Below, one piece after another: positions 9,625 through 34,394 of a DNA stretch of 64,000 bases (positions within the stretch are counted from its first letter, which is position 1; each line of letters starts with the position of its first letter). The translations under genes and the position numbers were made by a program. Under the pieces are notes generated by a model that saw nothing but the letters and a program-made list of their open reading frames with translations, made no database searches and was not told the origin of the DNA. The DNA comes from Pseudomonas vanderleydeniana (GTDB lineage: Bacteria; Pseudomonadota; Gammaproteobacteria; Pseudomonadales; Pseudomonadaceae), in the NCBI RefSeq assembly GCF_014268755.2, contig NZ_CP077093.1, forward strand, positions 2,592,001 through 2,656,000. The letters are read 5' to 3'.

Positions 9625-11676
9625 ATGCCTCGCCAGAGCGATTTGCGCTTCACTTTTGAACCCCTGCAAGGCGATGCCTTCGACGTGGTCTCCTTCACCC
9701 TGGACGAAGGCTTGTCCAAGCCGTTCAAGCTCCAGCTGGAGCTGGCCAGCGGCGATCCGGCGGTCGACTTCAACCGCCTGTTGGACCTGCCCGCGGTGTT
9801 CACCCTGTGGCGTGGCCAGACGCCGATCCGCCATGTCCACGGCCTGGTCAGCCGCTTGAGCCAGGGCGACACCGGCTTTCGCCGTACCCGCTACGAGGTC
9901 GAGCTCGAACCGCTGCTGGCGCGTGCCACGTTGAGTTCCAACTGGCGGATCTTCCAGCACAAGAGCGTGCCCGAAATCATCACCACGGTGCTCAAGGGGC
10001 TGCACCTGACCGATGTGCAACTGTTCCTGCGCTTTCCCCATCAGCCCCGCGAGTACTGCGTCCAGGCCGGGGAAACGGACTTCGACTTCATTGCCCGCCT
10101 CGCCGCCGAGGAGGGCCTGCTCTACACCTTCGAACATCGCCGCGACGGGCACCTGCTGTTCATCACCGATGATGTCACCGGCGTGGGCGCTATCGAGGGC
10201 GGGTCGGTCAACTATCAGCCCATGGCCGGTGGCGACGCCCACGAACCGGCCCTGCGCCGCTTTCACTACAGCGAGCAGGTGCGCACCGCCCGCCAGGTGC
10301 AACGCGACTACAGCTTCACCCACCCGCGCTACAACCAGCAGCACACCGCCGATGGCGGCCCGGCGCTGAAAAACCAGCACAAGGACTACGAACGCTACGA
10401 CTACCCCGGCCGCTACAAGCGCGATGCGGCTGGCAAACCCTTCACCCGGACCCGGCTGGCTGCCCTGCGCAGCGATGCGATCGGGGCCTGCCTGGTCGGC
10501 GACGATGCACGCCTGCAGCCGGGCATGACCTTTGATCTGCAAGAGCACCCACGGGCTGACCTCAACGATCGCTGGCGCAGCGTTCATCTGAAACACACTG
10601 GCAAACAGCACAGCAGCCTGCTGGAGGAAGCCTTCGGCAGCGACAGCGGCACTTCCTATGAGCTGGAGGGCACGGCCATACGCTGGAACGCCGAGTGGAA
10701 GGCCCCGCTGCACGCCAAGCCGCGCATCGACGGCCCGCAGGTCGCCACCGTGGTCGGACCGCCCGGCGAAGAGATCTATTGCGACGAGTGGGGACGGGTC
10801 AAGGTCTGCTTCCCCTGGGATCGCCGCGACCGCCAGGACGAATACAGCTCCTGCTGGATCCGGGTCGCCCAGGGTTGGGCCGGCACCCTGTGGGGCGCGA
10901 TGGCGGTGCCGCGGGTCGGCCAGGAACTGATCATCAGCTACCTGGACGGCGACCCCGACCAGCCGATCGCCACCGGGCGCACCTACCGCGCCACGCACCT
11001 GCCGCCCTACGAACTGCCCCGGCACAAGACGCGGATGACCATCAAGAGCCGGACCCACAAGGGCCAGGGTTTCAACGAACTGCGTTTCGAGGACGAGAAG
11101 GGCCAGGAGGAACTGTACCTGCATGCCGAGCGCGACCAGAACACCGAGGTCGGCCACGACCAGGGCCTCCAGGTCGGCCATGACCGAAGGCAGCGGGTCG
11201 GGCATGACGAGTACATCGAGACCGGCAACGACCGCCACCTGGCGATCCACGGCAACAGTCATTCGCAGGTCGACGGCGAACAGCAACACCGGGTGAAGGG
11301 CACGCGCACCACCGTGGTTGAAACCGATGACCACCTGGAGGTGGGCGGTAGCCGGAGCTTGAAGGTGTCGGGCCGTTTCGGCCTGGACAGCGGCCGGCAG
11401 ATTCACCTGCAGGCGGGCGATGAGATCGTTCTCGATGCAGGGGTCAGCCTGACCCTGCAGGCCGGCGGCCACTGCCTGCGGCTGGATCCGGCCGGGATTC
11501 ATTCCAGCGTGGCGCTGGACCTGGGGGCGGCGCCGAGCGTGCTTGCTTCCCTGGCTGCCGTCGAGGTCGCCATTCCCCTGACTTTCTTGCGTCAAGTGTC
11601 GCGAGAAGGCGCCTTGTTAATCAATTCCTGTGAGTTCGATACCCATGGAAACTGCAAGTTGCACCCTCATCACTAG
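9625..11676 (+). CDS. vgrG: VgrG spike protein (TssI)
   Basis: 683 residues. Residues 1-370 form the gp27-like hub (start R-F-T-F-E-P-L-Q-G-D, then F-x-L-x-L-E-L-A-S). Residues about 373-460 form the gp5-like OB fold with the signature E-W-G-R-V-K-V-x-F-P-W-D. A G-x-x-Q-E-V-like beta-prism needle follows (H-D-Q-G-L-Q-V-G-H-D-R-R-Q-R-V-G-H-D repeats near residue 510). The last about 60 residues leave the needle and end in a Cys/His-rich tail (C-E-F-D-T-H-G-N-C-K-L-H-P-H-H). No fused toxin domain is seen. The 3' end is overlapped by the DUF4123 adaptor gene, which fits cargo loading onto this VgrG. Confidence 0.95.
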   Translation: MPRQSDLRFTFEPLQGDAFDVVSFTLDEGLSKPFKLQLELASGDPAVDFNRLLDLPAVFTLWRGQTPIRHVHGLVSRLSQGDTGFRRTRYEVELEPLLARATLSSNWRIFQHKSVPEIITTVLKGLHLTDVQLFLRFPHQPREYCVQAGETDFDFIARLAAEEGLLYTFEHRRDGHLLFITDDVTGVGAIEGGSVNYQPMAGGDAHEPALRRFHYSEQVRTARQVQRDYSFTHPRYNQQHTADGGPALKNQHKDYERYDYPGRYKRDAAGKPFTRTRLAALRSDAIGACLVGDDARLQPGMTFDLQEHPRADLNDRWRSVHLKHTGKQHSSLLEEAFGSDSGTSYELEGTAIRWNAEWKAPLHAKPRIDGPQVATVVGPPGEEIYCDEWGRVKVCFPWDRRDRQDEYSSCWIRVAQGWAGTLWGAMAVPRVGQELIISYLDGDPDQPIATGRTYRATHLPPYELPRHKTRMTIKSRTHKGQGFNELRFEDEKGQEELYLHAERDQNTEVGHDQGLQVGHDRRQRVGHDEYIETGNDRHLAIHGNSHSQVDGEQQHRVKGTRTTVVETDDHLEVGGSRSLKVSGRFGLDSGRQIHLQAGDEIVLDAGVSLTLQAGGHCLRLDPAGIHSSVALDLGAAPSVLASLAAVEVAIPLTFLRQVSREGALLINSCEFDTHGNCKLHPHH

Positions 11677-12535
11677 GCGCCTGCCAGGGCTGAACTGCCC
11701 TGACCTCATGCCCCAGGATCTGGCTCTCGATGATCAGTATCTACTGCTGGACCTGATTCAGGATGAGTCGTTGTCGGTATTGCTTCACAGCGATCGCCTG
11801 TTGACGGGGTGGGCCGTCGAACCCCTGTTCAGCGGTACCGCGTACCGGCAAATGAGAGCCGTCGGCCCTCATCTGGTTGCGCTGCCACAAGACAGCGCGA
11901 GCCTGGCGAATATTTTGCCGCGTCTTGTAAACGAGCCCCTGGGTATCGTCTTTCAGCCTCGGGAAGGGATGGCCTGGGAGTCCCTTGTCGAGCACTGCCG
12001 TCAGCACCTGTGGGCTGAAGCTCCAGACGGTCGTCGCGCACTGTGCCGCTGGTACGATCCCAGAGGATTGAGGGCGTTGTTGATGGGGTTGTCCCCCACA
12101 CAACGCGAGGCGCTGACCGCTCCCTTTGCCTCGTTGACCTGGCACTCGGGGCATGGCTGGTATCAGTGGTCCCGGCCTGGCACTCCACTGTCGGGACATG
12201 AGCCGCCAGTGACATGGGCACTGGACCACGATGTGCTTGAGCGGGTGGCACAAGAGCGGCAGTGGGATCAGGTATTGGTTCTGGTTGAGCGCTATGCCGG
12301 GCACCTCCCGGTGCCGCTCGACAAGGCTGTCGCGAAAGTCTTCGATCTGCTCTCGGCGGCTCGCCGGTTCGGTTATGTCACTGCAAGCCAGCAGGAGCGT
12401 TGGCTACGCCAGTACCTGCGCCTGGGCGAGTTCTGGCTCGTGTCCGAGACCGAGGCATGGCTCACGACGGATGTCCCCTTGGAACAGAGATTGTGCCGGC
12501 TGGAGGCACAGCCATTACCTGGAGTAAAACCATGA
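11645..12535 (+). CDS. DUF4123 T6SS effector adaptor/chaperone (Tap/TEC-like)
   Basis: 296 residues from the ATG at 11645; a GTG at 11630 would add five residues, and neither start has a clear Shine-Dalgarno. The segment D-D-Q-Y-L-L-L-D-L-I-Q-D-E-S-L and the later R-A-L-C-R-W-Y-D-P-R-G-L-R-A-L-L are the two core DUF4123 motifs. Proteins of this family hold a cognate effector and load it on the partner VgrG tip. The gene begins inside vgrG (about 32-47 bp overlap, different frame), and its stop overlaps the effector ATG (ATGA at 12532-12535). VgrG, adaptor and cargo are thus locked into one translational unit. Confidence 0.87.
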   Translation: METASCTLITRRLPGLNCPDLMPQDLALDDQYLLLDLIQDESLSVLLHSDRLLTGWAVEPLFSGTAYRQMRAVGPHLVALPQDSASLANILPRLVNEPLGIVFQPREGMAWESLVEHCRQHLWAEAPDGRRALCRWYDPRGLRALLMGLSPTQREALTAPFASLTWHSGHGWYQWSRPGTPLSGHEPPVTWALDHDVLERVAQERQWDQVLVLVERYAGHLPVPLDKAVAKVFDLLSAARRFGYVTASQQERWLRQYLRLGEFWLVSETEAWLTTDVPLEQRLCRLEAQPLPGVKP

Positions 12536-14862
12536 CCGCTTCCGAACTCCTTGACCTGCCGCCGCCTTTGTTCGCGGATAGCACCTACAGCTGCAACCCG
12601 GTCAGCACGCCGCCCTGCCAGGAGCCCCGGGTGGACGCCGTGCACATCACCGGTGAGGGCAGCACTTTTTATGTGCTGTCCGCTCCCGAGCAACGGCGCC
12701 TGCTTGAAGCGATCCAGGTCGTCGAATCGCTGATGAAGGAGTTCCAGAAAATCATCCAGAGCCCACCCCAGCAGGCACGATCCTGTAGCGCAGGGGGGTG
12801 TTGGCCCGGCGAGGAAACCTGTGACTGCGAGGCCTGCCAGAAGCAGGCGTGGGCTCGCAAGGCTGAAAAAGCGGGCCTGCTCAGCCTGCACCAGGCACGG
12901 GTGCAGGCTGAAGAAGTGGGACTGACAGCCAACGACGATATACAGGGGCGGATCAGTGAACTCACTCAACGGCGTAAGCAGTTCCTGGAACTGTGCGGTG
13001 TGTTCAGCAGCAAGACCACTTGCACCATCAGTGAAAAAATCATCGAGACCATCGACACCGAGCGGGCTGCGCTCAAGTCGCAACTGGATGCCGCTCAAAA
13101 GAGCGCCAGCCTGATCGCCACCGACACGCTGCCGGACCCTGCCTTGGGCGCGAAAGTCATTTCAGGGAAGAGTGTCACCCGGGTCCACGGCAACAATGGG
13201 GTGACGGAAGTCATTGTGTTGAGCAAGCCGGATCGTCGCTATTACATATCCCGATCGGCGGCTGATGGGTTGCGTGAATCCATGAGCGTGGAGGTCGGAC
13301 GTCAACCGGTATCCAAGCCTCTCGATAGCGCCGGACTCAAGGCCCGTGCCGGGACGCTGGTCGGTGACATCAAGAAAGAAATCGGCAAGCGGATCAAGGC
13401 CGACCTGGCCAAACCGCTGGGCAATCTGGAAGGCCGGCTCAAGAGCTGGGTGTTCCCCAAGGACAGCGCCATCAATGCCTTGCACGAGGAGTTCGACTGG
13501 ACTTCCGACGACAGCGATGAGGCACGTTATGCCGTTAGTACCGAAGCCCATTTTCTGCGTTTCGCGGCCCAGGCCAGCGTGGGATTTTCCGGTTTCGATC
13601 CCAAGCAGGGAACGGTCTCGCTGGGCCTCAAGGGGCAGGCCAGCTTCTCCCTGGCGGAAGGCAAGATCACGTTCTCCCACTTCATGCCCAGCCAGGGTGG
13701 TCGCGATCTGTTCATTGCCTACAAGAATGCCGCTGGCAAGCGGGACTATCTGCGTTGCGGAGCCTTGCGCCTGCGCGGCTCGGTGGAGCTGAGCTGCTTT
13801 TCCGGAATCACGGCGGCGGGTTCGGCCACTACCGAGGTCAAGTGGAAGGAGGCGCCCTCGGGGGCCAGCGCCTTGTTGCTGAGCCCTGAGCTGGAATCAC
13901 GGGGCGGCAAGGTGCAAATAAGGGGGAGCGGGTTGTTGGGGGGGCAGTTCGGTGGGTCGCTGACCGGGGCATTGGAGTGGATGATGCCGGAGCTGCAGCA
14001 TCGGCCAGATGCTCCGTGGGCGCCTTTGGTGGAGGTGCGGGCGGAGGGGAATATGGCTTATGGAGTGGGAGGAGAGAGGGATTTTCAGGTGGTGCTCGAT
14101 AAGCAGCGTCTGTATCTGCATTTCAAAGGACAGGTGGTATTTGGTCCGGGCGCCGGCGGTGGGTTTGGCACGTTGGTGGATTTTGAGAAAGCCGCTGAGC
14201 TGGTTGGGGTGATTTATCAAGCGTTGAGTGAGGTGGATTTTCGGTATCTGTTTGGAATTGATGGGGATGCGTTCGAGCTTTTCTATCAGGGTGTCTCAAG
14301 GTTGTTGAGTGAGCCGAGGAGGACTCTCAGTGACCTGATAGGGCAAGGACCGACAGTGTTGAAGGATTGGTGGACGGGGCGATTAAAGAACATTGCCTCA
14401 GTTGGTCAACTGGCCGACCGCATACTGAACGACGAACCACTTTTACTCGGAACTCAGCGTATCCCTCTGTCCCGCCTGCCGCCCGAGGTGCTGGGGCCGG
14501 CTCTGTACATGCTTAGCGAGTACTATCTTCTAAGTCCCAGGGACAATACGGAAAAAGCCATTATCCATCTGCTCAGGCAGGTCAGCAGTTGGCGCCAGTT
14601 TTACTTGGTGCTGGAACGTATGCATCCGACTGCCAACGTTGTCAAAGCGGTGGATAGCATCGACCGTATCCGCAGTTATTTGAGTGGGCAGCAGCAGGAA
14701 GAATTCTCCGATTTCATCAAGCACCTGGGCGAACATGCCGACGAGGCACAGCCCGGCCAGCCCTTGCCAAAGTGGCAGCCTTGGCAGCCGTTGTACGTCA
14801 ACGGAAAATTCGAAGAACTGATGGCGGCACGGGAATACTGGGAGGCGAATCGCTATGTTTGA
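12532..14862 (+). CDS. Predicted T6SS effector, 776 aa, cysteine-rich N-terminus, no recognised toxin family
   Basis: The ATG at 12532 has GGAG upstream and overlaps the adaptor stop. Residues 1-80 are poorly structured. Residues 85, 90, 97, 99 and 102 are cysteines (C-x4-C-x6-C-x-C-x2-C), a compact cluster able to bind metal or form disulfides. Residues 105-215 are charged and helical. Residues about 370-560 are Gly/Ser/aromatic beta-rich with alternating polarity, and the last about 180 residues are helical. There is no signal peptide, PAAR, Rhs, lipase GxSxG or colicin-like double TM hairpin that I can identify. From about residue 456 (nt 13900) codon choice shifts away from the strong G/C third positions, suggesting a separately acquired C-terminal module. 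Position after vgrG and DUF4123, and before a lipoprotein array, argues for an effector acting in the periplasm or envelope; the activity is unknown. Confidence 0.75.
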   Translation: MTASELLDLPPPLFADSTYSCNPVSTPPCQEPRVDAVHITGEGSTFYVLSAPEQRRLLEAIQVVESLMKEFQKIIQSPPQQARSCSAGGCWPGEETCDCEACQKQAWARKAEKAGLLSLHQARVQAEEVGLTANDDIQGRISELTQRRKQFLELCGVFSSKTTCTISEKIIETIDTERAALKSQLDAAQKSASLIATDTLPDPALGAKVISGKSVTRVHGNNGVTEVIVLSKPDRRYYISRSAADGLRESMSVEVGRQPVSKPLDSAGLKARAGTLVGDIKKEIGKRIKADLAKPLGNLEGRLKSWVFPKDSAINALHEEFDWTSDDSDEARYAVSTEAHFLRFAAQASVGFSGFDPKQGTVSLGLKGQASFSLAEGKITFSHFMPSQGGRDLFIAYKNAAGKRDYLRCGALRLRGSVELSCFSGITAAGSATTEVKWKEAPSGASALLLSPELESRGGKVQIRGSGLLGGQFGGSLTGALEWMMPELQHRPDAPWAPLVEVRAEGNMAYGVGGERDFQVVLDKQRLYLHFKGQVVFGPGAGGGFGTLVDFEKAAELVGVIYQALSEVDFRYLFGIDGDAFELFYQGVSRLLSEPRRTLSDLIGQGPTVLKDWWTGRLKNIASVGQLADRILNDEPLLLGTQRIPLSRLPPEVLGPALYMLSEYYLLSPRDNTEKAIIHLLRQVSSWRQFYLVLERMHPTANVVKAVDSIDRIRSYLSGQQQEEFSDFIKHLGEHADEAQPGQPLPKWQPWQPLYVNGKFEELMAAREYWEANRYV

Positions 14863-15886
14863 GCGAAAGGAGCGATGCAGGAATCGATTGTTTCCTGTTG
14901 CACTACTGCTGGTCTTGGCCGGCTGTAACCAGACCAGTCCGGTCCTCAGTCAGTCATTGGCACCGCAGCACGTCAGAGAGATTGCCGAACGTATCGACCA
15001 GCGCTATCCGCAGCAGCCGGCCGCCAAGCGGAAAGCGTTGCTACAACAAGTGATAACGGCTATCGACAACATGGTGTTTGTCGAAGGTGGGACATTCGAG
15101 ATGGGCGACTTCGGCTGGATTGGTGAGTACGATCCGGAAAATATGTGTGAATGGCCATGCGGAGTATCTAGGGATGAGTTGTGGTTTTTAGTACCGGACT
15201 CGGATTCCAGGCCGCTACATACCGTGCGCCTCGATAGTTTTTATATGGCCAAGTACCATACTACTGTAGCGGAAGATGACTTGTTTCGCTATTTTACAGG
15301 GTTGCCTCAATACCGAATGGAACTCACCGACGAGGACCGAAGAGATAACCTGACTCAGTCGTACCGAATTCGAGTTCCAGAGATGTTTAAACCGGATTAT
15401 CCCGCCCGTAGCAAGTTATGGCAGGAAGCGAAGGATTACTGCCTGTGGCTGGGTGAACTGAGTGGGTTACTGGTGGATCTTCCCACCGAGGCCCAATACG
15501 AATATGCGGCACGTTCTGGTGGGCGTTATGTTGTATACTCCACCGATACGGGCAGCGTGATTAGAGGGAAAAATGTTCATGCTAAAGGAGATATCTATCC
15601 TGTTGGGCACTTTCCTCCAAATCCGCTCGGTTTATATGAAATGGGTGAAAATGCAGTCTCCTGGGTCGACGATTGGTATGCCGCAGATTACTATGAGAAT
15701 TCCCCGGTAGAAAATCCCCGCGGACCAGAGACAGGCACTGAAAAAGTTCAGCGTGGAGGTACTGCGCTCTGGACTCCCAGCGCCTCCATGACCATGCGCC
15801 GCATAAACAGCCCAATGGTTCTTCTGGACTACTACGCTCAAAATAGCTATCGCTGCTCTATTCAAAAAAGCGGGCCATTGAAATGA
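14855..15886 (+). CDS. SUMF1/FGE-fold lipoprotein, copy 1, candidate immunity protein
   Basis: 343 residues. It starts 8 bp inside the effector gene with GGAGG upstream. The signal peptide ends in the lipobox L-A-G-C with Cys24 followed by N-Q-T. The mature protein has the formylglycine-generating-enzyme (C-type-lectin-like) fold: the G-G-T-F-E-M-G entry, the H-T-V-R-L-D-S-F-Y-M-A-K-Y block, L-P-T-E-A-Q-Y-E-Y-A-A-R-S-G-G, then N-P-L-G-L-Y-E-M-G-E-N-A-V-S-W-V. The C-terminus has Y-R-C-S where true FGE has G-F-R-C, and the upstream C-x4-C copper-binding catalytic pair is missing, so enzyme activity is unlikely. The T6SS regulator TagR is a known precedent for a FGE-like protein in T6SS. Immunity to the adjacent effector is inferred from order and localisation. 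Confidence 0.8.
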   Translation: MFERKERCRNRLFPVALLLVLAGCNQTSPVLSQSLAPQHVREIAERIDQRYPQQPAAKRKALLQQVITAIDNMVFVEGGTFEMGDFGWIGEYDPENMCEWPCGVSRDELWFLVPDSDSRPLHTVRLDSFYMAKYHTTVAEDDLFRYFTGLPQYRMELTDEDRRDNLTQSYRIRVPEMFKPDYPARSKLWQEAKDYCLWLGELSGLLVDLPTEAQYEYAARSGGRYVVYSTDTGSVIRGKNVHAKGDIYPVGHFPPNPLGLYEMGENAVSWVDDWYAADYYENSPVENPRGPETGTEKVQRGGTALWTPSASMTMRRINSPMVLLDYYAQNSYRCSIQKSGPLK

Positions 15887-15984
15887 ATGCCCGTCGCCTG
15901 ATACATAGCTTCCGGTTTATATCTGCGTGCGCTTTTCGGAAAACGGTGCAGTGGAACGTTGTGTCTGGACGAAAGGCGCGGAAC

Positions 15985-16992
15985 ATGTACCGGCTGCCAT
16001 TTGTTGCACTACTGCTGGTATTGGCCGGCTGCAATAAGACCAGCCCGGTCCTCAGTCAGTCGCTGACACCGCAGCACGTCAGGGAGATAGCGGAACGTAT
16101 CGATCAGCGCTATCCGCAGCAGCCCGTCTCCGAACGCCAGGCGTTGCTGCAACAGGTGGTGACCGCTATCGACAACATGGTGTTCGTCGAAGGCGGAACG
16201 TTCGAGATGGGGGATTTTGGCTGGGTAGGTCAATACGATCCCGCCCACATGTGTGAATGGCCGTGCGGCGTGCCTCGGGATGAGCTGTGGTTTCTGGTCC
16301 CCAAGTCGGATTCGAGACCGTTGCACACCGTACGGCTCGATAGTTTTTATATGGCCAAGTACCACACCACTATCGCGGAAGATGATCGGTTTCGGTATTC
16401 CACGGGGCTTCCTCAGTATCGAATGGAGCTAACTGAAAGGGACCTGGAAAATGGATTGACTATTCCCCATCGACTTAGAAATCCCGATTCGTTCAAGCCT
16501 GAGTTTCCAGCCCGCAGCAAGTTATGGCAGGAGGCGAAGGATTATTGCCTTTGGCTAGGAGAGTTGAGCGGGTTGCCTGTGGATCTACCCACCGAAGCCC
16601 AGTACGAATATGCCGCTCGTTCTGGTGGTCGCTATGTGGTTTATGCTACTGATAATGGAAGCATCAATAAAGAAAGAAATGTAAGTGGGGATACTGACGT
16701 ATATTCCGTGGGTGCTTATCCACCAAATCCACTGGGGCTCTATGATATGGCGGGCAATGCAGTGTCTTGGGTCAATGACTGGTACGCCGCCGACTACTAC
16801 CAAACTTCCCCGGTCGATAATCCTCGAGGTCCAGAAACAGGGACCGAAAAAGTCAGGCGAGGGAGTGATTCCATTTCTGCACCAGAGCTTGCAATGACCA
16901 TGTGGCGCCGAAGTGATAAGCCGGTGAGGAAAGACTATTACGCCCAAAGTAGTTTTCGCTGTTCCATCCAGCAAAGCGGGCCATTGAAATGA
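15985..16992 (+). CDS. SUMF1/FGE-fold lipoprotein, copy 2
   Basis: 335 residues from the ATG at 15985, which gives a compact lipoprotein signal (M-Y-R-L-P-F-V-A-L-L-L-V-L-A-G-C) with Cys16 and then N-K-T; an AAAGG stands a few bases upstream. The frame is also open from an ATG at 15883 that overlaps the copy 1 stop (ATGA). That start would add exactly 34 residues before the signal peptide and remains a real alternative by translational coupling. Fold and motifs are as in copy 1, with D-M-A-G-N-A-V-S-W-V instead of E-M-G-E-N-A-V-S-W-V, closer to canonical FGE. Differences from the other copies cluster in three patches (after the F-R-Y-x-T-G-L-P strand, around the T-D-N-G-S loop and before the C-terminal C-S). 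Confidence 0.78.
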   Translation: MYRLPFVALLLVLAGCNKTSPVLSQSLTPQHVREIAERIDQRYPQQPVSERQALLQQVVTAIDNMVFVEGGTFEMGDFGWVGQYDPAHMCEWPCGVPRDELWFLVPKSDSRPLHTVRLDSFYMAKYHTTIAEDDRFRYSTGLPQYRMELTERDLENGLTIPHRLRNPDSFKPEFPARSKLWQEAKDYCLWLGELSGLPVDLPTEAQYEYAARSGGRYVVYATDNGSINKERNVSGDTDVYSVGAYPPNPLGLYDMAGNAVSWVNDWYAADYYQTSPVDNPRGPETGTEKVRRGSDSISAPELAMTMWRRSDKPVRKDYYAQSSFRCSIQQSGPLK

Positions 16993-17090
16993 TTGCTTCC
17001 AGCGCTATGCAGAACTTCGGTTTTGCAAATTCGCACGCGGATCGAAAGTTGAGACAGTGGGACTTTGTGCCTGAACAAAAGAAATGGAAT

Positions 17091-18098
17091 ATGCGTTGGT
17101 TGTTCTCTATTGCGCTATTGCCGGTATTGGCCGGCTGTGACCAGACCAGCCCGGTCCCCAGTCAGTCGCTGGCACCGCAGCACGTCAGGGAGATAGCGGA
17201 ACGTATCGATCAGCATTATCCGCAGCAGCCCGTCTCCGAACGCCAGGCGTTGCTGCAACAGGCGGTGACCGCTATCGACAACATGGTGTTCGTTGAAGGC
17301 GGAACGTTCGAGATGGGGGATTTTGGCTGGGTAGGTCAATACGATCCCACCGACATGTGTGAATGGCCATGTGGCGTGCCTCGGGATGAGCTGTGGTTTC
17401 TGGTCCCAAAATCGGATTCGAGACCGTTGCACACCGTACGGCTCGATAGTTTTTATATGGCCAAATACCACACTACCATCGCGGAAGATGATCGGTTTCG
17501 GTATTTCACTGGGCTTCCTGTTTATCGAATGGAACTGACAGAGGAAGATCTCAGGGACGGTTTGACAAAGCCATCGAGGGAAAGAAGTCCAGAGCTGTAC
17601 CTGCCAGATTACCCCGCTCGCAGTAAGTTGTGGCAGGAAGCCAAGGACTACTGTTTGTGGCTGGGCGAGCTGAGTGGACTTTCCGTAGATTTACCTACTG
17701 AAGCTCAGTATGAATATGCTGCTCGTTCCAAAGGACGTTATGTCGTGTACTCCACCGATACTGGTAGTATCGCTAGAGGGGAAAATGTTCATGATGGTCA
17801 GTTCATATATCCTGTTGGCTATTTTCCTCCTAACCCACTAGGTCTTTATGAGATGGGGGAGAACGCTGTGTCGTGGGTGAATGATTGGTACGCCGCCGAC
17901 TACTACCAAAATTCACCAATAGACAATCCTCGGGGGCCGGAAACAGGAACGGAGAAAGTCAGGCGAGGCAGTGATTCGCTGTCTTCTCCACAGCTTGCTA
18001 TGACCATGTGGCGCCGCAGTGATAAACCGGTAAGGAGGGACTATTACGCCCAAAGTAGTTTTCGCTGTTCCATCCAGCAAAGCGGGCCATTGAAATGA
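17091..18098 (+). CDS. SUMF1/FGE-fold lipoprotein, copy 3
   Basis: 335 residues from the ATG at 17091 (signal M-R-W-L-F-S-I-A-L-L-P-V-L-A-G-C, Cys16, then D-Q-T). A longer in-frame start at 16989 overlaps the copy 2 stop and again adds exactly 34 residues. No strong Shine-Dalgarno precedes the inner ATG. The Asp at +2 after the lipidated Cys is unique in the array; Asp+2 is an inner-membrane retention signal in Enterobacteria, while Pseudomonas sorting depends more on +3/+4, so the meaning is open. The first about 140 nt of the repeat unit is nearly identical to copy 4, so these two are the youngest duplicates or have undergone gene conversion. Confidence 0.78.
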   Translation: MRWLFSIALLPVLAGCDQTSPVPSQSLAPQHVREIAERIDQHYPQQPVSERQALLQQAVTAIDNMVFVEGGTFEMGDFGWVGQYDPTDMCEWPCGVPRDELWFLVPKSDSRPLHTVRLDSFYMAKYHTTIAEDDRFRYFTGLPVYRMELTEEDLRDGLTKPSRERSPELYLPDYPARSKLWQEAKDYCLWLGELSGLSVDLPTEAQYEYAARSKGRYVVYSTDTGSIARGENVHDGQFIYPVGYFPPNPLGLYEMGENAVSWVNDWYAADYYQNSPIDNPRGPETGTEKVRRGSDSLSSPQLAMTMWRRSDKPVRRDYYAQSSFRCSIQQSGPLK

Positions 18099-18196
18099 TT
18101 GTTTCCAGCGCTATGCAGAACTTCGGTTTTGCAAATTCGCACGCGGATCGAAAGTTGAGACAGTGGGACTTTGTGCCTGAACAAAAGAAATGGAAT

Positions 18197-19204
18197 ATGC
18201 GTTGGTTGTTCTCTATTGCGCTATTGCCGGTATTGTCTGGTTGCAACCAGGCCAACCCGGTCCTCAGTCAGTCGCTGGCCCCGCAGCACATCAAGGAAAT
18301 TGCCGAACGTATCGATCAGCGCTATCCGCAGCAGCCCGTCTCCGAACGCCAGGCGTTGCTGCAACAGGTGGTGACCGCTATCGACAACATGGTGTTCGTC
18401 GAAGGCGGAACGTTCGAGATGGGGGATTTTGGCTGGGTAGGTCAATACGATCCCGCCGACATGTGTGAATGGCCATGTGGCATGCCTCGGGATGAACTTT
18501 GGTTTCTGGTCCCCAAGTCGGATTCGAGACCGTTGCACACCGTACGGCTCGATAGCTTCTACATGGCCAAGTACCACACCACCATCGCGGAAGATGATCG
18601 GTTTCGATATTTCACTGGGCTTCCTTTGTATCTAATGGACCTTACAGAAGAGGATGTCAGGGACGGTTTGACAAGGCCGTACCGGGAAAGAAATCCGGAT
18701 ATGTTCAATAAAGATTTTCCTGCTTATAGCAAAGTTTGGCAGGAAGCCAAGGACTACTGTTTGTGGCTGGGTGAGCTGAGTGGACTTTCCGTAGATTTAC
18801 CTACTGAAGCTCAGTATGAGTATGCCGCTCGTTCCAGAGGGCGATATGTCGTATATCCCACAGATACTGGAAGTATCGCCATAGGGAGAAACGTTCACGA
18901 TGATAGGAGGATAAAGCCTGTTGGTTCCTTTCCTCCTAATCCGTTGGGTCTATATGAAATGGGGGAGAACGCTATATCGTGGGTGAATGATTGGTACGCC
19001 GCCGACTACTACCAAACTTCCCCCGTCGATAATCCTCGGGGCCCGGAAACAGGAACGGAGAAAGTCAGACGAGGGAGTGATTCGCTATCTTCTCCACAGC
19101 TTGCTATGACTATGTGGCGGCGCAATGAAAAACCGATAATGCAAGAATATTACGCCCAAGATAGCTATCGCTGCTCCATCCAACAAAGCGGGCCATTGAA
19201 GTAA
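18197..19204 (+). CDS. SUMF1/FGE-fold lipoprotein, copy 4
   Basis: 335 residues from the ATG at 18197 (lipobox L-S-G-C, Cys16, then N-Q-A); the alternative start at 18095 overlaps the copy 3 stop and adds 34 residues. The body matches the other copies, with a distinct central patch (charged to K-D-F-P-A-Y-S-K-V-W) and a distinct loop after the T-D-T-G-S turn. The C-terminus Q-Q-S-G-P-L-K is shared by copies 2-4. It is the last of the array. Beyond its stop there is a 204-bp spacer and then the DUF3592 gene. Confidence 0.78.
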   Translation: MRWLFSIALLPVLSGCNQANPVLSQSLAPQHIKEIAERIDQRYPQQPVSERQALLQQVVTAIDNMVFVEGGTFEMGDFGWVGQYDPADMCEWPCGMPRDELWFLVPKSDSRPLHTVRLDSFYMAKYHTTIAEDDRFRYFTGLPLYLMDLTEEDVRDGLTRPYRERNPDMFNKDFPAYSKVWQEAKDYCLWLGELSGLSVDLPTEAQYEYAARSRGRYVVYPTDTGSIAIGRNVHDDRRIKPVGSFPPNPLGLYEMGENAISWVNDWYAADYYQTSPVDNPRGPETGTEKVRRGSDSLSSPQLAMTMWRRNEKPIMQEYYAQDSYRCSIQQSGPLK

Positions 19205-19408: not shown

Positions 19409-20095
19409 ATGAAAAAGACAAAAGCAGCACTGTGGATGTTTGTCATAGTGGGCGTCCTGCTCTTGGTCTCGGCGGTTGTTGTCTACAGCCAGCGTGTTAC
19501 GGAACTGTCCACGATGATTCCTGCAGATGGCACGGTCGTGGCCATGAGTGATAAGGGCTGTCTTACCGTTCAGTTCAAGACGTTCGAGAATCGGCCCGTG
19601 CAATTCGGCGGCAATGTCTGCCAGCGGCCACCGGCATACGACCTGGAGGAGAGAGTCCCCGTTCTCTATTCGCCGCAGAACCCCAACAACGCCTATATCG
19701 ATGACATCACGCACAAATGGTTCTTCAGCATTGCGATGGGGGGGATGGCCCTTGGCTTTCTGGGAATAGGTGGTGTTTTTGTGTGGGTGGTGACCTTGAA
19801 TGGTTGGCGTGCTGAACGCCGTATGAACAGGCTCAAGATGACCGGCAGGCAACTGAACGCGCTCCTGATGGGGGCGGAGCGCGATGAGACGATTAACCTC
19901 AACGGTCAGAATCCATGGCGAATCGTTGCCCAATGGCTCGATCCCAACACCAACCAGGTCCGACTGTTTTACAGCAAGCACTTCTGGTTCGACCCCTCTC
20001 CCTACCTGACGGGTAAGCACATCCAGGTCTGGATCGACCCGCAACGCCCGCAGCACTACTGCATCGACACCGACATCCTGCCAAAACTGGCCTGA
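19409..20095 (+). CDS. DUF3592-like two-TM membrane protein
   Basis: 228 residues with AGGAG before the ATG. TM1 is at residues about 7-27 (after K-K-T-K). A beta-rich extracytoplasmic stretch of about 80 residues follows, holding two Cys and the phrase V-P-V-L-Y-S-P-Q-N-P-N-N-A that is the hallmark of DUF3592 proteins. TM2 is at about 108-132, then a cytosolic domain repeating the family pattern (V-W-I-D-P-Q-R-P). It lies 30 bp before tssM and probably shares its mRNA. No T6SS function is established for the family. Position between an effector/lipoprotein array and tssM suggests either an extra immunity factor or a passenger. Confidence 0.7.
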   Translation: MKKTKAALWMFVIVGVLLLVSAVVVYSQRVTELSTMIPADGTVVAMSDKGCLTVQFKTFENRPVQFGGNVCQRPPAYDLEERVPVLYSPQNPNNAYIDDITHKWFFSIAMGGMALGFLGIGGVFVWVVTLNGWRAERRMNRLKMTGRQLNALLMGAERDETINLNGQNPWRIVAQWLDPNTNQVRLFYSKHFWFDPSPYLTGKHIQVWIDPQRPQHYCIDTDILPKLA

Positions 20096-31745: not shown

Positions 31746-32246
31746 TCAGGACAGTGCGATGCCGAGCCGGCTGACATACTCGGCCATCTTCGGATCGTTT
31801 CTTATGCCTTCGAGGAACTCCTGATGGAGCTTTTCGTTCATGGAACGAGAGTTGAGGGCGGCGTATTTCGAATCGTCGTCGATGAGACCGTTTCGTTCGT
31901 ACAGCGCTTTCATGTGAGATTGCAGCAGATTGAAGTAGTCATCTAATTCCCCGGACGAAAGACTCGAAAATTTTGCATCGCCAATGGCTGATGTTCCATC
32001 TGGTAGAATGATGATTTCGATCACGAACTCACTCCACCAGCTTGGTATCGTCCCTACTGGAACAGGCGGGTCCATAACATCGGATGTCTCGGCGGCAGCG
32101 GCGCTGATGCTGACTTGGTCAGAGCGATTTTTCGTGCTTTCAGGGGGGGCTATTGAAAAATGCTCCTGGTCTTTTTTTTGAGGCGTTATTGTTTTCTGGG
32201 TGGACGAGTTATATGTGTATGGTGATAGGCTGCTGTTGATATTCAT
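31746..32246 (-). CDS. Small Ser/Asn-rich protein of unknown function
   Basis: 166 residues, no signal peptide. The N-terminal 60 residues are disordered (rich in S, T, N, Q, K, P) and end in D-Q-V-S-I-S-A-A-A, a pattern common at the N-termini of Pseudomonas flagellar-export-like hypotheticals. The remainder is helical with acidic patches (G-L-I-D-D-D-S-K-Y). An AAAGG lies ahead of the ATG. It is 77 bp upstream of the barrel gene on the same strand and reads as part of that operon. Base composition is lower in G/C than flanking genes. Function is not recognised. Confidence 0.65.
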   Translation of the reverse strand: MNINSSLSPYTYNSSTQKTITPQKKDQEHFSIAPPESTKNRSDQVSISAAAAETSDVMDPPVPVGTIPSWWSEFVIEIIILPDGTSAIGDAKFSSLSSGELDDYFNLLQSHMKALYERNGLIDDDSKYAALNSRSMNEKLHQEFLEGIRNDPKMAEYVSRLGIALS

Positions 32247-32298
32247 GAGGGTGCCTTTCGTGGGAGGATGTTTTTTGGGAGCGGTTGTTAAGACTGGG

Positions 32299-32790
32299 TC
32301 ACCAAGAGAAAGTCGAGATTGGTCGATTCCAGCTGGTTTCTCTCCAGCCGAAATTTAATGGCGTACCATTGTCGCTGAGCGCCTGATAATGATGGTCGAC
32401 CTCTACTGCATTGCTTGCATTCCAGTTTCCTCCGGGGGCGTCCGATTTATCTGCAAGCCAACGGTCTCCGGCAGCCAGATATTCTTTTCCGTTTTCTATG
32501 TATTTATGGTTTTTATGAGGATTCCACTCGCTACCTACCGAGTAGTAAGATCTGTAGTCGTGCTCATTGCCAAAACGCTTCAGTCGGATGTTGTATGTCT
32601 TCAGGCCTTGCTTAACGCTGGGGTAGGGATGGCCAGTAATTCTTGCAGTGCCTTTGATCTTGCTGAGGCTTTCGTCATCAAGGACAGTTACTTTGATGCC
32701 TTTGGCTTCAAGCGATGAAATGATGGGTGACTGCGCGAAGCTGACGGCTGGCAGGAAGAATATGGCTAGCAGTATGTGGCTGATTTTCAT
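32299..32790 (-). CDS. Secreted protein with bacteriocin-leader-like motif (candidate C39 substrate)
   Basis: 163 residues. The signal peptide is cut after V-S-F-A (19). Shortly after the cut comes L-D-D-E-S-L-S-K-I-K-G (37-47), close to the double-glycine leader consensus (E-L-S-x-I-x-G-G) that C39 peptidases recognise, with K-G in place of G-G. The remaining about 115 residues are rich in aromatic and charged residues (Y-R-S-Y-Y-S-V-G-S-E-W-N-P-H, then V-D-H-H-Y-Q-A) and have no recognised fold. GGAG precedes the ATG. It is the first gene of the strand-matched run toward the barrel and peptidase. Confidence 0.7.
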   Translation of the reverse strand: MKISHILLAIFFLPAVSFAQSPIISSLEAKGIKVTVLDDESLSKIKGTARITGHPYPSVKQGLKTYNIRLKRFGNEHDYRSYYSVGSEWNPHKNHKYIENGKEYLAAGDRWLADKSDAPGGNWNASNAVEVDHHYQALSDNGTPLNFGWRETSWNRPISTFSW

Positions 32791-33102
32791 TTTTAACTCC
32801 AGATTCGATTTTCAATCAAAATAGATGGTCCCATGTCTTGTCTTTCGATCAGGCAGGCGGCGGTATTGATCTCTTGGCTGTGGGAAGGCCAGTGTTTATT
32901 TTTGTAAGCGGATATTTGATATTTTTTGAATTTGTTTGATAACTACCCGAACGGATAGTTTTTTTGTTATTTGGAAATAAGAAGTATTGTTTTAGGGTTG
33001 TGCGTGAATATATGTGGGAAGTGGCTGTGGCTTAAGGACTACAAAAATAGTTTGATTGTTGAGGAAGGGAAGGATTATTGGTTCTGTGTTGTCTGGGCTC
33101 AC
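32791..33102. promoter_or_regulatory. AT-rich upstream region of the C39 operon
   Basis: About 310 bp of AT-rich DNA (TTTTTTG/GATATTTG runs near 32900-33000). It should carry the promoter for the leftward operon. The short frames present are unlike Pseudomonas coding sequence and I call no gene. Confidence 0.5.
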
Positions 33103-33133
33103 GCTATCGCCAGCAAGCCGGTTCCTACAGGGG
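33103..33133. repeat. REP element (single)
   Basis: GCTATCGCCAGCAAGCCGG followed by TTCCTACAGGGG is the standard fluorescent-Pseudomonas REP core. The same core occurs as an inverted pair at 54018-54123. Confidence 0.85.
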
Positions 33134-33229
33134 GTGGTGGTGCCTGGAATATCCAGAACACCTCAACGTTCTGCTTCTGCTTTGGCTTTTGATCTACCGG
33201 CCCTGTTCCCAGCCGGCTGAGTGGAGGTT

Positions 33230-33416
33230 CTGTTTCGAGAGTCGCCCGGCAGGGAGGCCGGGCGAGCCGTGTTGGGCCATGGATGGCCCGTCACGGCGTG
33301 CTCTCGAAACAGGACCGCAGCGAAGGAACCCTCGCGTAGCGAGGGCCAATGGAGGGGCTAGACCTTTTGGTTCCTTTTGGGGCGTTTGCCAAAAGGAACT
33401 CGCCCGTAAAGGGCGA
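33230..33416. repeat. Multi-hairpin dispersed repeat of Pseudomonas
   Basis: Six nested or consecutive inverted repeats: CTGTTTCGAGAG/CTCTCGAAACAG (33230-33241 / 33301-33312) enclosing CGCCCGGC/GCCGGGCG (33243-33264) and GCCGTG..GGGCCAT/ATGGCCC..CACGGC (33266-33297); then CCCTCGC/GCGAGGG (33329-33345), TTCCTTTTGG/CCAAAAGGAA (33371-33398) and CGCCC/GGGCG (33401-33415). I recall near-identical intergenic sequence from many Pseudomonas genomes, often mis-annotated as short proteins. No transposase is present. Confidence 0.75.
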
Positions 33417-33497
33417 AACAGAGACATCAGCCAAACGCGCAAACGGATATGTCCCCACTCTCTACAAACACACAAACCATCGATTCAACAACCGAGG

Positions 33498-34394
33498 CTA
33501 CCGAGAAAACCTCCTGGCCCCCGCCACACAAAAAATCACCGCCACCGTCACCCCCAGCATCCCCAGGCTCACCTGCTCATGCAGCAACGTCGCCGCCAGC
33601 GCCAGCCCGAAGAAAGGCTGCAACAACTGCAACTGCCCCACCGCCGCAATCCCCCCCTGGGCCAACCCCCGATACCAGAACACAAACCCGATCAACATAC
33701 TGAACAACGACACATACCCCAGACAAATCCAGGCCGCCGAACTGATGCCCGAAAAGCTCGCCGGCCTACAGAACCCGCTCAACACCAGCATCACCGGCAA
33801 CGACAACACCAGCGCCCAGCAGATCACCTGCCAACCGCCAAGTGTGCGCGACAGCCTGGCCCCCTCGGCATAGCCCAACCCGCAGACCAGAATCGCCAGC
33901 AGCATCAGCAGGTCCCCCAGGGGCGCGGCACTGAGCCCCTGGGCCAGTGCATACCCCACCACCAGCAGGCTGCCCAGTATTGAAAAACACCAGAACGCCG
34001 CCCGTGGCCGCTCACCACCACGCAGCACACCAAAGACCGCCGTCGCCAGCGGCAGCAGGCCGACGAACACGATCGAGTGCGCCGACGTCACATACTGCAA
34101 CGCCAGCGCCGTCAGCAACGGAAAGCCGACGACAACGCCCAGGGCCACCACCAGCAGCGGCAGCAACTGCTCCCGGGCCGGGCGCCGCGCCCTGAACAGC
34201 CACAGCAGGGCCAGAGCCAGCAAGCCGGCGATGCTCGCCCGGGCCACCGTGAGGAACACCGGGTCGAACTCCAGCACCGCCAACCGCGTGGTGGGCAGGG
34301 ACCCGCTGAAGATCACCACGCCGATCAGGCCGTTGAGCCAGCCACTCGTGCGCTGGCGGGTCGTCGATTGTTGTACGTTCGATAGCTGTTCCAT
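33498..34394 (-). CDS. EamA/DMT-family exporter
   Basis: 298 residues with ten predicted TM helices in two EamA repeats. The first repeat opens G-L-I-G-V-V-I-F-S-G-S-L-P; the second opens G-L-G-Y-A-E-G-A-R-L. A basic C-terminus follows. Members export amino acids or related metabolites. AGGAG lies 12 bp before the ATG. It is divergent from a MocR-type regulator, with a palindrome between them, the common exporter/regulator arrangement. The substrate cannot be told from sequence. Confidence 0.88.
   Translation of the reverse strand: MEQLSNVQQSTTRQRTSGWLNGLIGVVIFSGSLPTTRLAVLEFDPVFLTVARASIAGLLALALLWLFRARRPAREQLLPLLVVALGVVVGFPLLTALALQYVTSAHSIVFVGLLPLATAVFGVLRGGERPRAAFWCFSILGSLLVVGYALAQGLSAAPLGDLLMLLAILVCGLGYAEGARLSRTLGGWQVICWALVLSLPVMLVLSGFCRPASFSGISSAAWICLGYVSLFSMLIGFVFWYRGLAQGGIAAVGQLQLLQPFFGLALAATLLHEQVSLGMLGVTVAVIFCVAGARRFSR

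What the first reader, a model, noticed from the sequence alone, without database searches (positions are those of the whole stretch)
14855..19204. Expanded array of four FGE-fold lipoproteins beside a T6SS effector
One effector gene is followed by four paralogous lipoproteins with a formylglycine-generating-enzyme fold. The catalytic C-x4-C pair of FGE is not found; the remaining C-terminal Cys sits in a Y/F-R-C-S motif. The protected site would be the periplasm or outer envelope. Multi-copy immunity exists (tandem lipoproteins after PldB), but a pseudo-FGE fold array in this role is, as far as I know, not described. The fold has T6SS precedent in TagR.
Basis: partly seen in the sequence, partly recalled or inferred. 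Interest (0 to 1): 0.8.

Follow-up and report, generated by a model that had tools for sequence, protein, structure and literature searches.

The report
Tandem T6SS immunity lipoproteins, FGE fold
A Pseudomonas-type bacterium carries four side-by-side copies of a gene for an enzyme-shaped but probably inactive lipoprotein that most likely protects it from the toxin encoded just upstream; this kind of protection is already known, and what is of interest is where the copies differ from one another.

Summary
Four intact paralogous lipoprotein genes (14855-19204) with a formylglycine-generating-enzyme (FGE) fold follow a VgrG-DUF4123-effector unit inside a T6SS cluster; the catalytic Cys pair is missing. 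Best explanation: immunity to the upstream effector. In a 298-genome draw, all 13 genomes with a full-length effector relative encode the FGE protein (6 of the other 285 do); window aside, it is adjacent at 13 of 13 fetched full-length loci, and copies without a detected effector exist. The novelty claim fails: a 2021 paper (Lopez et al., title seen in reference lists only) describes FGE-like proteins as a widespread T6SS immunity family, and immunity arrays are described for Vibrio cholerae. Two to five FGE copies occur at 12 of 24 related named loci. The puzzling C-terminal Cys is an ordinary FGE-fold cysteine. Less expected: the copies are constrained (dN/dS 0.08-0.19 in four of six pairs) but differ mainly in three patches. 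One is the former catalytic loop, a region that varies in diversity-generating-retroelement proteins of this fold. Five of seven inspected effectors sharing only the C-terminal half are instead followed by tandem genes of an unrelated family. Binding and protection were not tested.

The parts
9625..11676 (+). VgrG (TssI) tip protein
   Evidence: Pfam/NCBIfam, (TIGR03361, 592.8 bits)
11630..12535 (+). DUF4123 adaptor/chaperone (start uncertain, ORF overlaps VgrG)
   Evidence: PF13503 60.9 bits; sub-cutoff match to Tla1
12532..14862 (+). T6SS effector, 776 aa (start chosen by me); lacks the N-terminal LysM of most aligned relatives; long beta-strand region about aa 361-550 and helical C-terminus in a poor model
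   Evidence: 26 related loci in named genomes
14855..15886 (+). F1, FGE-fold lipoprotein copy 1; overlaps the last 8 bases of the effector gene
15883..16992 (+). F2, FGE-fold lipoprotein copy 2 (translation may start at Met 35, just before the signal peptide)
16989..18098 (+). F3, FGE-fold lipoprotein copy 3 (modelled)
18095..19204 (+). F4, FGE-fold lipoprotein copy 4
17136..17138 (+). lipobox Cys codon of F3 (equivalents at 14924, 16030, 18242)
   Evidence: aligned Cys in 46 of 46 family members
17520..17612 (+). variable patch 1 (mature aa 129-159 of F3): 21 of 31 positions differ among the four copies
17751..17825 (+). variable patch 2 (mature aa 206-230): 17 of 25 positions differ
17961..18041 (+). 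variable patch 3 (mature aa 276-302), the loop that carries the Cys pair in true FGE: 20 of 27 positions differ

Best explanation
The four genes encode lipid-anchored periplasmic immunity proteins on an inactive FGE scaffold. They protect the producer and its kin from the effector encoded immediately upstream, which the cluster's VgrG/DUF4123 unit loads and the T6SS delivers to a neighbour's periplasm. Shown here: fold, lipobox motif, loss of the catalytic pair, systematic effector-FGE pairing, copies without a detected effector, and constraint on the copies. Supported but not firm: local expansion of the array. Inferred: that protection works by direct binding of the effector; that the three variable patches are the contact surface; and that the extra copies recognise variants of the effector carried by competitors. 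The effector's mode of killing is unresolved; membrane damage by its long beta-strand region is my guess.
For: All 13 genomes with a full-length effector relative (window's genome included; full-length meaning E of about 1e-126 or better) also encode the FGE protein at E <= 1e-20, against 6 of the other 285 in the 298-genome draw of the genus (Fisher 1.5e-18; species are related, so this overstates it, and I assume both calls drew the same 298). Window aside, FGE genes lie beside the effector at 13 of 13 fetched full-length loci, from 12 genomes, at both plasmid loci inspected of the three found, and at 24 of 26 named loci (the other two are short contigs). FGE genes with no effector in the 17-18 kb fetched: L090, L091, L092, L093. 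Effector pieces lie between FGE genes in three of 25 regions searched. Catalytic pair 0 of 46, lipobox Cys 46 of 46. Effector and FGE distances correlate, Mantel r 0.73-0.94.
Against: No binding or protection data. In all three subsets tested the Mantel correlation is slightly higher for the most distant FGE copy than for the one next to the effector (0.94 and 0.93 over 22 loci; 0.79 and 0.73 over 16; 0.88 and 0.81 over 10), so it does not single out a cognate copy and partly reflects common descent. No effector remnant was found in the window's own array. The effector lacks the LysM domain that aids loading in other systems (PMC10673891, passages). Synonymous as well as amino-acid differences rise in the patches and pooled pN/pS never exceeds 0.48 in 20-codon windows, so positive selection is not shown. 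The effector search missed a diverged effector in G050 (found in L095), so 'no effector' in the orphan genomes is not certain.
Confidence: 0.88

Rival explanations
1. The four lipoproteins are TagR-type regulators that control T6SS firing through a kinase, not immunity.
For: TagR has the same fold and a T6SS role (recalled); the genome has a TagR-like FGE protein beside a kinase-like ORF (both identities recognised by me from memory).
Against: That gene is at another locus and scores 20 bits with the array's family profile, against 485-499 for the array. The array family follows the effector also on two plasmids where no kinase is listed in the 14-kb stretches shown (that gene table is incomplete).
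Confidence: 0.03
2. They are accessory or maturation factors for the effector (chaperone, co-effector or modifying enzyme).
For: Tight synteny and co-occurrence with the effector are equally expected. In 22 of 24 named loci the FGE genes are on the opposite strand, so they could be separately regulated.
Against: Lipobox, the lost Cys pair, copies without a detected effector and multi-copy arrays fit immunity better.
Confidence: 0.05
3. Immunity is real, but only one copy (probably F1, which overlaps the effector gene) is cognate; F2-F4 are dosage or neutral duplicates with no role against other effectors. (A sub-case of the best explanation, not an alternative to immunity.)
For: The four copies form one group (92/99, not starred) in the tree. 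Much of the first 120 mature residues is near-identical among F2-F4, as after gene conversion or recent duplication.
Against: All four are intact, with dN/dS 0.08-0.19 for four of six pairs; the other two are saturated and F1-F2 is close to it. Differences concentrate in three patches (58 of 83 positions, 41 of 237 elsewhere; patches chosen after seeing the data).
Confidence: 0.4
4. Array growth by displacement: each copy is a relic of a former effector-immunity pair, as proposed for Vibrio cholerae. (Concerns origin; compatible with immunity.)
For: Effector pieces between FGE genes in L043, L048 and L080; the abstract of PMC5361080.
Against: In the window there is no remnant and the four copies group together rather than with those of other strains (support not starred).
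Confidence: 0.12

Closest known systems
FGE-like T6SS immunity family (Lopez et al. 2021, J Bacteriol 203:e00281-21; Tsi3 of Acinetobacter baumannii, recalled)
   Same: FGE-domain protein in the role of T6SS immunity protein (title); as I recall the abstract, judged unlikely to be functional enzymes and dependent on effector binding
   Different: Here four tandem copies behind one effector. Whether the window effector is kin to that paper's effector, or whether that paper reports tandem copies, was not checked. Paper not held
Immunity gene arrays of Vibrio cholerae (Kirchberger et al. 2017, PMC5361080; abstract seen)
   Same: Several immunity genes 3' of one effector; effector pieces in three related arrays
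   Different: The window's copies look locally duplicated, not acquired one by one
Stenotrophomonas rhizophila Tse3/tsi3 cluster (PMC13340143, passages)
   Same: Long run of immunity homologues after one effector, with an FGE-fold protein in the cluster
   Different: There 12 tsi3 homologues are reported and one protein of the cluster is named as FGE-fold
Sulfatase-modifying FGE (PDB 2q17, 6muj, 1y1e)
   Same: Fold; equivalents of C173 (in human FGE) and C311
   Different: Catalytic Cys pair absent in 46 of 46
DGR variable proteins of the FGE-type C-type-lectin fold (TvpA, PDB 2y3c)
   Same: Same fold class (E 5e-10); variation in the equivalent region (human FGE 322-369, PMC5006420 passages)
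   Different: No template copy found: the variable C-terminal DNA has matches in the genome only in the four copies

Membership tests
FGE-sulfatase domain family (PF03781) | Profile match above the curated cut-off | tested here: met
   100-110 bits against 23.3 for all four; model of F3 matches FGE structures
Catalytically active FGE | Cys pair in the C-terminal loop | tested here: not met
   0 of 46 Cys at either aligned position, none in mature aa 274-300
FGE-like T6SS immunity proteins | FGE-domain gene adjacent to a T6SS effector | tested here: met
   Window; 13 of 13 and 24 of 26 related loci
FGE-like T6SS immunity proteins | Protects against the cognate effector by binding it | not testable with these tools
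   Needs bench work
FGE-like T6SS immunity proteins | Exported, lipid-anchored (expected for a periplasmic target; not known to me to define the published family) | tested here: met
   Lipobox motif in four copies, aligned Cys in 46 of 46; sequence motif only, no localisation data
TagR | Groups with TagR and sits in a kinase/TagQRST locus | tested here: not met
   The TagR-like gene lies at G000:C1:55850 and scores 20 bits with the array's family profile; no tree with TagR was built
Displacement-type immunity array | Remnants of former effectors between copies, copies closest to those of other strains | tested here: not met
   None in the window; copies group together, support not starred. Pieces seen in L043, L048, L080
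DGR variable protein | Template repeat copy of the variable region | tested here: not met
   No further copy of window 17780-18098 in the genome
DGR variable protein | Neighbouring reverse transcriptase | not tested
   Not searched for

The most novel reading that the evidence does not exclude
The FGE/C-type-lectin scaffold is used here as a diversifiable recognition module: the enzyme's old active-site loop has become the effector-binding surface, and tandem duplication plus gene conversion of the constant part maintains a small bank of variants that neutralise different versions of the same effector family.
Probability: 0.3. Interest if true: 0.5.

Novelty: new member of a known kind. Interest (0 to 1): 0.3.

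Why it matters
It adds a set of named loci for a known immunity family and makes one question testable: whether tandem immunity copies are a repertoire against effector variants. One variable patch coincides with the enzyme's former active-site loop. Effectors sharing a C-terminal half are paired with two unrelated gene families, often in tandem arrays, which points to the effector class rather than the immunity fold as the reason for array formation.

Tried and rejected
Active FGE enzyme: rejected, no Cys pair. TagR-type regulator: disfavoured. DGR diversification: disfavoured, no template copy in the genome (reverse transcriptase not searched). Positive selection by pN/pS: not shown. Displacement origin for the window array: no remnant. 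Effector toxin class: Pfam and NCBIfam over 24 relatives gave LysM (and other LysM-protein models) plus single weak matches, among them Ntox25 (E 0.0024) and VPA1263_T6SS_effector (E 0.001), each in one member. The effector model is poor (pLDDT 58.5, pTM 0.36); 0 of its 778 PDB matches reach E <= 0.001. No transmembrane helix by my hydropathy test. Alternating-hydrophobicity windows are enriched at aa 400-552 (49 of 134, against 42 of 604 elsewhere), but VgrG, a soluble beta protein, also scores high, and the effector's total (91) lies within the shuffled range (mean 78, max 154), so this is only suggestive. A first scan of genome contigs with the single effector found nothing; the alignment-based one worked.

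Rows dropped: from alignment A3 (46 rows) I left out two odd FGE ORFs of L065, the broken FGE ORFs of L076 and L081, and the cut one of L079; from A2 (24 rows) the truncated L075, the broken effectors of L076 and L081, the distant L082, the second effector piece of L080 and the plasmid relatives L006 and L007. The Mantel test used 22 loci (L079 has no FGE row; the second, distant effector of L074 was left out).
Full report
What is there. The window lies at 2592001-2656000 of a 7.03-Mb single-contig genome. A T6SS cluster fills its first 23.7 kb: TssA, VasI, VgrG, DUF4123 and TssM were matched; the other core genes I recognised only by eye. The effector gene (12532-14862) starts within the end of the DUF4123 gene, and the first FGE gene overlaps the effector's last 8 bases. 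Four paralogues follow. Third-position GC is 0.53-0.56 in the array, against 0.80-0.84 for TssA, VgrG and TssM; in the effector it is 0.72-0.78 up to codon 460 and 0.63-0.65 in the last 316 codons, which suggests an acquired effector-tail/immunity segment.

Fold and activity. All four match PF03781. The model of F3 is confident and matches FGE, PvdO, PorK and TvpA structures. Across 46 relatives, the aligned catalytic positions hold no Cys, while C173, R310, C311 and the lipobox Cys are invariant. C311 aligns with the 'fRCA' end of solved FGEs, and C173 with the 'yC.W' Cys of human FGE (the Streptomyces enzyme has no Cys there); that these two pair in human FGE is recalled.

Association. In a 298-genome draw of the genus, 40 genomes had an effector match and 13, window's included, a full-length one. 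The FGE protein was found in 19 genomes, including all 13. Of the six others, G050 has a diverged effector with two FGE genes (L095); G061, G272 and G293 have a single gene with no effector in 18 kb; G106 has two genes at a contig end, so undecided; and G087 has a decayed gene. G074 has an extra copy without effector besides its effector locus (L093). Since one search missed the effector of G050, diverged effectors elsewhere in the orphan genomes are not excluded. Window aside, at 13 of 13 fetched full-length loci FGE genes are adjacent, 1-5 copies. Of 26 named loci, 24 have adjacent FGE ORFs; L075 ends 90 bases after the effector and L082 is a 3.3-kb fragment with a distant relative. In L076 and L081 effector and FGE frames are broken and in L079 the FGE is cut. 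Twelve of the 24 hold two or more full ORFs and two hold four or more (L070 Pseudomonas putida 31303 with five, L073 with four). In L057 and L058, as in the window, the FGE genes run with the effector; in the other 22 they face it. Two Vibrionaceae plasmids have the same unit with one FGE gene; a third plasmid hit was not inspected. Four tandem copies are thus at the upper end of a common pattern.

How the array grew. In a 46-protein tree the window's four copies group together (92/99) and L057's three group together (90/91); neither reaches the tool's star, and the tool warned of long branches meeting between the Vibrio rows and the window's group. No effector remnant lies in the window array, whereas L043, L048 and L080 carry effector pieces between FGE genes (25 regions searched; matches in L063 and L074 are mainly to the distant second effector of L074 and are not counted). 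So the window fits local duplication, while some relatives fit displacement as described in PMC5361080 (abstract).

Variation. Nei-Gojobori dN/dS is 0.08-0.19 in four pairs; two pairs are saturated and F1-F2 nearly so (dS 2.0): the copies are constrained. Of 99 variable positions, 58 fall in three patches of 83 residues, the other 41 in 237; patches were picked from these data. Family-wide entropy is highest in the same places. A region fixed beforehand by PMC5006420 (human FGE 322-369, equivalent to DGR variable regions; passages), which I placed at about mature 269-315, holds 23 variable of 47, against 76 of 273 elsewhere (p 0.006, positions not independent). Synonymous differences are also lower in the first 60 codons than in the patches, so gene conversion or recent duplication of the first part explains some of the contrast.

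Effector. Pfam finds LysM in 20 of 24 aligned effectors. Window and L057 begin after it; L058 is cut by the contig end there, so it cannot be judged. PMC10673891 reports LysM aiding interaction of effector and VgrG (passages). No toxin domain was found and the model is poor. Seven loci with only partial effector matches were inspected. L053 and L055 carry FGE genes. L050, L051, L052, L054 and L056 share profile positions about 396-797 or parts of that but are followed by 2-4 tandem ORFs of another family, 16 in all. One of the 16 matched all 15 others by BLAST (listing cut). Of four scanned, three had Sel1 or TPR matches, all below the Pfam cut-off, and one none. The FGE profile finds none of the 16. 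So one effector half is paired with two unrelated immunity candidates, both often in arrays.

Precedent. Lopez et al. 2021 is known to me here by title from reference lists and from memory of its abstract (Tsi3 of Acinetobacter baumannii); the paper is not held. PMC13340143 cites it as showing the FGE fold as widespread T6SS immunity (passage). Paper searches listed no title on this particular four-copy array; of the listed papers I saw passages of eleven and the abstract of one, none in full, and most subscription papers are not in the library.

Verdict. Real, most likely immunity, and a new member of a known kind with an interesting pattern of variation.

Noticed in passing
L050, L051, L052, L054, L056 (downstream of the partial effector matches): Effectors sharing the C-terminal half with the window effector are followed by 2-4 tandem genes of one family with weak, sub-cutoff Sel1/TPR matches in three of four scanned, instead of FGE genes.
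   Followed up: partly
window 19409-20095: DUF3592-family protein with two hydrophobic, membrane-spanning-like stretches between the array and TssM; role in the T6SS locus unknown.
   Followed up: no
window 12532-14862: The effector lacks the N-terminal LysM found in 20 of 24 aligned relatives; L057, at 65% identity, also starts after it and also has its FGE genes on the effector's strand.
   Followed up: partly
L093 8150-9169 and L094 7705-8565: An FGE gene without effector in one genome and a decayed one in another have neighbouring ORFs with similar starts; L094 also has a VgrG-type fragment beside it, as if an effector unit once sat there.
   Followed up: partly
window 31746-33000: GC dip (0.526 for 32001-34000) with small reverse-strand ORFs, one with a signal-peptide-like start (32299-32790).
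   Followed up: no
G000:C1:5234313 (L097) and G000:C1:55850 (L098): The genome's two other PF03781 genes: one PvdO-like, one TagR-like beside a kinase-like ORF (identities recognised from memory of their neighbours).
   Followed up: partly
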